Source: an uncultured Pseudomonadales bacterium
GTDB lineage: Bacteria > Pseudomonadota > Gammaproteobacteria > Pseudomonadales > Azotimanducaceae
DNA length: 64,000 nucleotides
NCBI GenBank assembly: GCA_958296165.1
Contig: OY282447.1
Span: 3,757,154 to 3,821,153 of the forward strand
Direction of reading: 5' to 3'
The translations under genes were made by a program, and so were the position numbers. The notes beneath the pieces were generated by a model. The model saw nothing but the letters and a program-made list of their open reading frames with translations, had not been told where the DNA came from and did no database searches. Positions 52,759 to 53,366 of the stretch are shown one piece after another. Each line of letters starts with the position of its first letter. Positions within the stretch are counted from its first letter, which is position 1.

Positions 52759-53286
52759 TCAATGGCCTGTCAAGATCGCCACGCCCTGCTCGAAGGCGGC
52801 TTCGGCGCGGCCGCGCAATTCCGCCAATGTGCGGCTGCCGATGGGATGCTCCACTAGCGCGAACGGGTAGTCCGCCAGGCCCAATGAGCGGGCGATGTTG
52901 CGGCCGGTGGGCTCGAATGGGTGGGTGCAGATCACCAGCGCTGGTTTGCCGAGTTGTTCGAAGAAGATGCCGTCATGCACACTGCACGTTGAGCAGCTTC
53001 CTCAGTCGCCCACGGCGGTGATGAGGAAATCCGCCGCGGCGGCCAGTTCGCGGTGGTGTTCCGGCAGCGCCGGGCGACCGGCGTTGCGCTTGTCCACGAA
53101 ATGCGCCGTGCGGCACCCATATGCGTCCACGAACAAGGCCGCGGTTTCGTTCAGCAGCACGTCCGCGTTGGCCTTGCCGTTCGATAACAAGCCGATGTTC
53201 AAACCCGCCAAGCTCTCAAGACGAGGCGCGGCCGTGCGAGCTGCCGACGAGCGCCGACCGGCCGGGTCTACCAAGGTGATGGCCAT
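52759..53286 (-). CDS. UGSC-family selenoprotein (in-frame TGA read as selenocysteine)
   Basis: The gene is split by a single in-frame TGA at 53002-53004 (codon 95) exactly where the family motif U-G-S-C is expected: codons read TGA GGA AGC TGC. Upstream, MAITLVDPAGR to LITAVGD is one Rossmann-like half; downstream, HDGIFFEQLGKPALVICTHPFEPTG to AEAAFEQGVAILTGH is the other, in the same frame. Together they give 175 residues. A paired hairpin right after the TGA fits a bacterial SECIS. The function of UGSC proteins is unknown to me beyond a redox-type motif. ATG 53286 has an AAGGA site. Naive gene callers would report two fragments or a pseudogene. Confidence 0.82.
52963..53004 (-). promoter_or_regulatory. 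SECIS-like hairpin directly after the in-frame TGA
   Basis: Starting one base after the TGA, a lower stem (bases 2-10 with 31-39, one mismatch and one G-U) and an upper 6-bp stem (14-19 with 23-28) enclose a GUG apical loop about 20 bases from the TGA. The distance and the G-U loop match the bacterial SECIS consensus for SelB binding. Confidence 0.6.
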
Positions 53287-53366
53287 GCGTTTTTCCTTGC
53301 CTATTTGCGATGGGGCGAAGGTTGCACGGCGCGGCTGCACTCGTCAATCGCCGCTATGATGGGCAC

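What the first reader, a model, noticed from the sequence alone, without database searches (positions are those of the whole stretch)
52759..53286. Selenoprotein hidden by an in-frame TGA
TGA at codon 95 falls exactly at the U of a U-G-S-C motif, both halves stay in one frame, and the downstream half has no start of its own with a ribosome site. Standard gene calling splits it into two ORFs.
Basis: partly seen in the sequence, partly recalled or inferred. Interest (0 to 1): 0.85.

Follow-up and report, generated by a model that had tools for sequence, protein, structure and literature searches.

The report
UGSC selenoprotein, a known family
The stop-like TGA inside this bacterial gene almost certainly codes for the rare amino acid selenocysteine, making the gene one more member of an already described but functionally uncharacterised selenoprotein family called UGSC.

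Summary
On the minus strand (53286-52759) one frame is broken only by TGA at codon 95 (53004-53002), at the U of UGSCSTC. The read-through protein matches Pfam UGSC (170 bits, cut-off 25) end to end. The genome has selA-selB-selC (tRNA-Sec, anticodon UCA) in one cluster plus selD. Of 41 distinct UGSC relatives compared, 40 have TGA here and one has a Cys codon. Among 294 genomes of the order, all 25 with a TGA-type UGSC have selB; the single Cys-type genome lacks it. A hairpin just after the TGA is conserved, with silent codon positions frozen (permutation p<5e-5). Function is unproven.

Additions here:
- A predicted Rossmann-like fold (pLDDT 92), with Sec at a helix start, against the published 'Trx-like' guess.
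- Weak but coherent similarity to GrdB/PrdB reductase selenoproteins.
- A partner gene of unknown family beside UGSC in essentially all relatives. It often carries a C-terminal CxxC tail or a fused CPTC domain. In this genome it lies 2.37 Mb away beside a transposase.

Best guess: a two-component selenolate reductase.

The parts
52759..53286 (-). UGSC-family selenoprotein gene, 175 aa, ATG at 53286-53284, stop TGA at 52761-52759
   Evidence: Translation with TGA=U; PF24696 170 bits over residues 5-173; NF041046 123.8 bits over 28-173
53002..53004 (-). TGA read as selenocysteine, codon 95
   Evidence: TGA in 40 of 41 distinct family sequences, TGT in one; column 95 invariant Sec/Cys
52984..53004 (-). 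U-G-S-C-S-T-C motif (UxxCxxC); Sec95, Gly96, Ser97 and Cys98 invariant in the alignment, second Cys (101) only in part of the family
   Evidence: Alignment A1
52974..52988 (-). apical hairpin of the putative bacterial SECIS: CGTGCA-GTG-TGCATG, with the loop about 20 nt after the TGA
   Evidence: Fold -20.1 kcal/mol, z -1.9; consensus stem in 29 sequences, 97% of cells paired, one compensatory pair; silent positions of codons +3 to +10 nearly frozen
52959..53004 (-). longer helix enclosing the apical hairpin in the close relatives, starting at the TGA itself
   Evidence: Single-sequence folds; the lower stem is not shared by all subfamilies
53294..53298 (-). AAGGA, plausible Shine-Dalgarno 7 nt before the ATG
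   Evidence: Read from sequence

Best explanation
The gene encodes a UGSC-family selenoprotein. Shown by sequence: SelB, tRNA-Sec(UCA), SelA and SelD are present, and a conserved hairpin follows the UGA, so codon 95 is read as selenocysteine. Inferred: the protein is a Rossmann-like alpha/beta domain with the selenolate of Sec95 at the start of a helix, and Cys98 three residues on as resolving thiol (selenenylsulfide Sec95-Cys98). It acts as the reductase subunit of a two-component enzyme whose other subunit is the conserved partner protein. The partner's redox module, a C-terminal GVCIDC tail in this subfamily or a fused CPTC domain in the paralogue's subfamily, re-reduces the selenenylsulfide. 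The chemistry would resemble GrdB/PrdB: nucleophilic attack by a selenolate on a small electrophilic substrate. The substrate is unknown. In this genome the subfamily-1 partner sits at 1.44 Mb, beside a transposase-like ORF, and would act in trans. The confidence given is for the selenoprotein claim; the reductase-with-partner mechanism is about 0.5.
For: Sec decoding: selA 525 bits, selB 406 bits, tRNA-Sec 71.6 bits, clustered at 3.103-3.106 Mb, and selD 245 bits; anticodon tca. TGA in 40 of 41 family sequences, Cys in the other. 25 of 25 genomes with TGA-type UGSC have selB among 294 genomes of the order (40 have selB), and the Cys-type genome G323 does not (Fisher 3.5e-26). Silent-site freeze after the TGA: 0.79 against 0.48 and 0.82 against 0.39 third-position identity, permutation p<5e-5. 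Hairpin conserved in 29 sequences. A second TGA-type UGSC gene in the same genome. Fold: AF2 pLDDT 92.4. Partner beside UGSC in all fetched relatives with enough flank and fused to it in L038. Partner CxxC tail or fused CPTC domain. Subfamily-1 partner elsewhere in this genome, 77% identical. GrdB/PrdB similarity: hhalign E 7e-4, Sec aligned on Sec, score 32.8 against a best of 19.2 in 150 column-permuted controls.
Against: No peptide or selenium data. hhalign probability for GrdB/PrdB is only 27-30%; single PrdB-like sequences rank from 3rd to 65th among 230 targets, so the kinship is not secure. Hairpin conservation could partly reflect codon preference, and only one pair shows compensatory change. 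G135 has a related TGA-containing (USSC) protein but no selA over the cut-off. The partner gene is not adjacent in this genome. No substrate evidence. The second Cys of UxxCxxC and the partner CxxC tail are not universal.
Confidence: 0.95

Rival explanations
1. The gene is a selenoprotein but a free-standing thiol oxidoreductase with thioredoxin-like chemistry, as the 2008 GOS paper guessed, rather than a subunit of a GrdB/PrdB-like reductase.
For: UxxC motif; [quoted passage not shown] partner proteins carry thioredoxin-like CPTC domains or CxxC tails.
Against: The high-confidence model is a Rossmann-like alpha/beta fold; best structural matches are flavodoxin, receiver, lumazine synthase and similar domains. 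The partner gene is adjacent in essentially all relatives, which argues for a complex.
Confidence: 0.3
2. Real stop codon: the two halves are separate proteins or a decaying pseudogene.
For: The copy has lost its usual neighbour and table-11 calling gives two ORFs.
Against: Both halves evolve under purifying selection; the TGA is shared by 40 family sequences; the hairpin after it is identical at bases +12 to +34 in ten close family members; the downstream half has no usable start site.
Confidence: 0.02
3. Sequencing error or a different recoding (TGA as Trp or Cys).
For: None specific.
Against: The same TGA is found in independent assemblies. In the order, genomes with TGA-type UGSC have selB without exception, and the one without selB has a Cys codon. 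Neighbouring genes such as secA run normally under table 11.
Confidence: 0.01

Closest known systems
UGSC family (Pfam PF24696, NCBIfam NF041046; 'UGSC-containing protein' of the GOS selenoproteome paper, PMC2398784)
   Same: Full-length match, Sec at the UGSC motif, SECIS-like hairpin, partner (probably the paper's 'Unknown_1') fused in some members
   Different: Scores 1.2 bits under the NCBIfam cut-off; its usual partner gene is not adjacent in this genome
GrdB/PrdB selenoproteins (glycine/sarcosine/betaine/D-proline reductase, Pfam PF07355)
   Same: UxxC(xxC) with Sec at the start of a helix, same order of strands and helices after it, later HPIG segment aligned to FPLG; profile similarity above permuted controls
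   Different: Low identity (13%); PF07355 does not match UGSC in the Pfam scan; no GrdA or PrdA neighbour identified; UGSC is shorter
Thioredoxin-like selenoproteins
   Same: UxxC redox motif
   Different: Predicted fold is Rossmann-like, not thioredoxin-like

Membership tests
UGSC family selenoprotein (PF24696 / NF041046) | Profile match over the curated cut-off | tested here: met
   PF24696 170.4 bits against a cut-off of 25; NF041046 123.8 against 125, marginally below
UGSC family selenoprotein (PF24696 / NF041046) | Sec or Cys at the first position of the [U/C]GSC motif | tested here: met
   TGA at codon 95 followed by GSC; 40 TGA and 1 TGT among family sequences
Bacterial selenoprotein | selA, selB, selC and selD in the genome | tested here: met
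Bacterial selenoprotein | SECIS hairpin immediately downstream of UGA, with G at the loop start | tested here: met
   Stem and GTG loop about 20 nt after UGA, conserved with frozen silent sites; SelB binding itself not testable here
Bacterial selenoprotein | Selenium incorporated in the protein | not testable with these tools
   Needs mass spectrometry or 75Se labelling
GrdB/PrdB (PF07355) | Profile match to PF07355 | tested here: not met
   Only UGSC is reported by Pfam up to E 10; the PF07355 match in PrdB-like proteins stops at about the Sec position, so the profile cannot see the downstream half
GrdB/PrdB (PF07355) | Sec-centred alpha/beta core shared with GrdB/PrdB | tested here: inconclusive
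   hhalign E 7e-4 at 27-30% probability, above permuted controls; same element order in models, PrdB-like model only pLDDT 63 overall; ranks mixed against real proteins
Thioredoxin fold | Thioredoxin-like topology | tested here: inconclusive
   Predicted model alternates beta and alpha in Rossmann fashion; none of the listed structural matches is a thioredoxin, but absence from a list is not proof

The most novel reading that the evidence does not exclude
UGSC proteins are an unrecognised branch of the GrdB/PrdB selenolate reductases. They work in a two-component enzyme with a partner of unknown family whose redox relay is exchangeable (C-terminal CxxC tail or fused thioredoxin-like domain). 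In this genome the pair has been pulled apart next to a transposase, yet both genes are kept.
Probability: 0.35. Interest if true: 0.55.

Novelty: new member of a known kind. Interest (0 to 1): 0.3.

Why it matters
UGSC is one of the commonest marine bacterial selenoproteins (PMC2398784) and has no known function. The near-universal partner gene, the predicted fold and the possible GrdB/PrdB kinship make its function testable: co-express the pair and screen for selenolate-dependent reductive cleavage. The gene itself is a clean example of a selenoprotein that stop-based gene callers break in two.

Tried and rejected
PDB sequence searches with the UGSC, PrdB-like and partner profiles gave no usable match, so no solved homologue was found in that copy. 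Pfam and NCBIfam scans of the partner gave nothing above cut-offs. Rfam found no SECIS family hit here. Weak PF24696 hits in 500-aa proteins (L066-L068) looked at first like possible GrdB; L067 and L068 read as FAD-binding dehydrogenase-like proteins (by eye) and were taken as chance matches. The structural comparison with the PrdB-like model gave only generic Rossmann-type matches, Z under 8. Reading the second TGA (codon 176) as Sec was rejected: it ends the family's length.

Full report
The gene. On the minus strand from 53286 to 52759 there is one reading frame of 175 codons plus stop, interrupted only by TGA at codon 95 (53004-53002). Read with TGA as Sec it gives MAITLVDPAGRR...FLITAVGD-U-GSCSTCSVHDGIFFEQLGKPALVICTHPFE...ILTGH. 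Table 11 breaks it into two ORFs. The ATG has AAGGA at a normal distance; the listed start in the downstream half is a GTG without one.

It is more than a chance open frame. The read-through protein matches Pfam UGSC at 170 bits from residue 5 to 173 and NCBIfam UGSC_fam at 123.8 bits, just under that model's cut-off of 125. Fourteen relatives were fetched from the GTDB genome collection. All 13 that cover the codon have TGA there. With further loci from the order and class, 40 distinct family sequences have TGA and one (L061) has TGT. Sec/Cys95, Gly96, Ser97, Cys98, Asp105, Pro8 and Pro148 are invariant in 31 aligned proteins. Both halves are under purifying selection against the nearest relatives.

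The decoding machinery is in the genome: selA (525 bits), selB (406 bits) and tRNA-Sec (71.6 bits, anticodon tca) lie in one cluster at 3.103-3.106 Mb, and an oxidoreductase-fused selD at 4.406 Mb. In 294 genomes of the order, 40 have selB over the cut-off. All 25 genomes with a TGA-type UGSC are among them, and the one genome with the Cys type is not. Fisher's p is 3.5e-26, ignoring relatedness. In nine of the 25 a UGSC gene lies 2-7.5 kb from selB. One exception at class level: G135 has a TGA-containing relative with a USSC motif, fused to the partner, but no selA over the cut-off. It is a draft genome; the cause was not resolved.

The SECIS. The RNA after the TGA folds into a hairpin, CGUGCA-GUG-UGCAUG, whose loop begins about 20 nt after the UGA. 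In ten close family members bases +12 to +34 are identical, third codon positions included. Among codons whose amino acid is invariant, third-position identity is 0.79 in the 12 codons after the TGA against 0.48 elsewhere for subfamily 1, and 0.82 against 0.39 for the paralogue's subfamily (permutation p<5e-5 in both). Over 29 sequences 97% of stem cells pair, with one compensatory U-A to G-U change. The strongest evidence here is the silent-site freeze; covariation is slight because the stem scarcely varies.

Fold. AlphaFold2 with 31 family members gives pLDDT 92.4: alternating strands and helices, with Sec95 immediately before helix 96-110. The best solved-structure matches are generic alpha/beta domains (best Z 10.9, a designed protein, then a methyl-coenzyme M reductase activation complex chain at 10.2). 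The 2008 paper on the family supposed a Trx-like fold (PMC2398784); the model argues against that.

Possible kinship with GrdB/PrdB. The same genome has a PF07355 (GRDB) selenoprotein at 4.639 Mb with TGA in a U-P-L-C motif. Profile comparison of UGSC (A1) with eight such proteins (A2) gives E 7e-4, probability 27%, aligning Sec on Sec and the later HPIG on FPLG. 150 column-permuted controls reach at most 19.2 against 32.8 for the real pair, and reversed profiles about 12. Against 222 ORFs taken from the window and loci, two PrdB-like proteins rank highest after true UGSC relatives, but others rank as low as 65th. The PrdB-like model shows the same order of elements after the Sec, at moderate confidence. 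This is suggestive, not proof. The PF07355 match ends at about the Sec, so Pfam could not show the link.

Partner. In every fetched relative with enough flanking sequence a gene of about 350 codons (about 490 with the extra domain) with no Pfam or NCBIfam family lies next to UGSC, usually just upstream, and in L038 it is fused in frame behind the UGSC domain. This appears to be the 'Unknown_1' domain of the GOS paper; that identification is my inference. In subfamily 1 it mostly ends in ...KPIGVCIDC; in the paralogue's subfamily it has instead an N-terminal domain with CPTC. Swapping one redox module for another suggests that the partner supplies electrons to Sec95. In the window's genome UGSC1 stands alone next to secA, while its partner, 77% identical to that of L033, is at 1.4385-1.4395 Mb with a mutator-type transposase ORF just downstream (transposase identification by eye). 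The second UGSC gene at 1.547 Mb keeps its CPTC-type partner.

Mechanism and confidence. That this gene is a selenoprotein: about 0.95. That it works as a selenolate reductase subunit with the partner: about 0.5. That it is homologous to GrdB/PrdB: about 0.35-0.4. The substrate is not known.

Novelty. The family has been in the literature since 2008 and is reviewed in PMC9312934 and PMC13188914, where its function is still uncharacterised. This is a new member of a known kind. The partner anatomy, the fold and the GrdB/PrdB lead are the parts worth following up.

Noticed in passing
L002 1498-2013 (genome 1547407-1547919, +): Second UGSC selenoprotein gene in the same genome, with TGA at the same codon and a CPTC-domain partner gene directly upstream.
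   Followed up: yes
L073 796-1932, - (genome about 4639411-4639818): GrdB/PrdB-like selenoprotein (PF07355) with TGA in a U-P-L-C motif in the window's own genome.
   Followed up: partly
L078 397-981 and 1498-2547: The subfamily-1 partner gene stands without UGSC; soon after its stop a mutator-type transposase-like ORF follows, so the pair was probably split by a rearrangement.
   Followed up: partly
L038 (genome G135): UGSC-like domain with a USSC motif at TGA fused in frame to the partner, in a draft genome where no selA over the cut-off was found.
   Followed up: partly
G315, G454, G495, G475, G430, G493, G526, G451, G302: A UGSC gene lies within 2-7.5 kb of selB in nine genomes, so it may travel with the selenocysteine machinery.
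   Followed up: no
L061 326-1486 (partner) and L062-L064 UGSC N-termini: A CGDxxC motif occurs at the N-terminus of UGSC in one subfamily and of the partner in another, perhaps another movable redox module.
   Followed up: no
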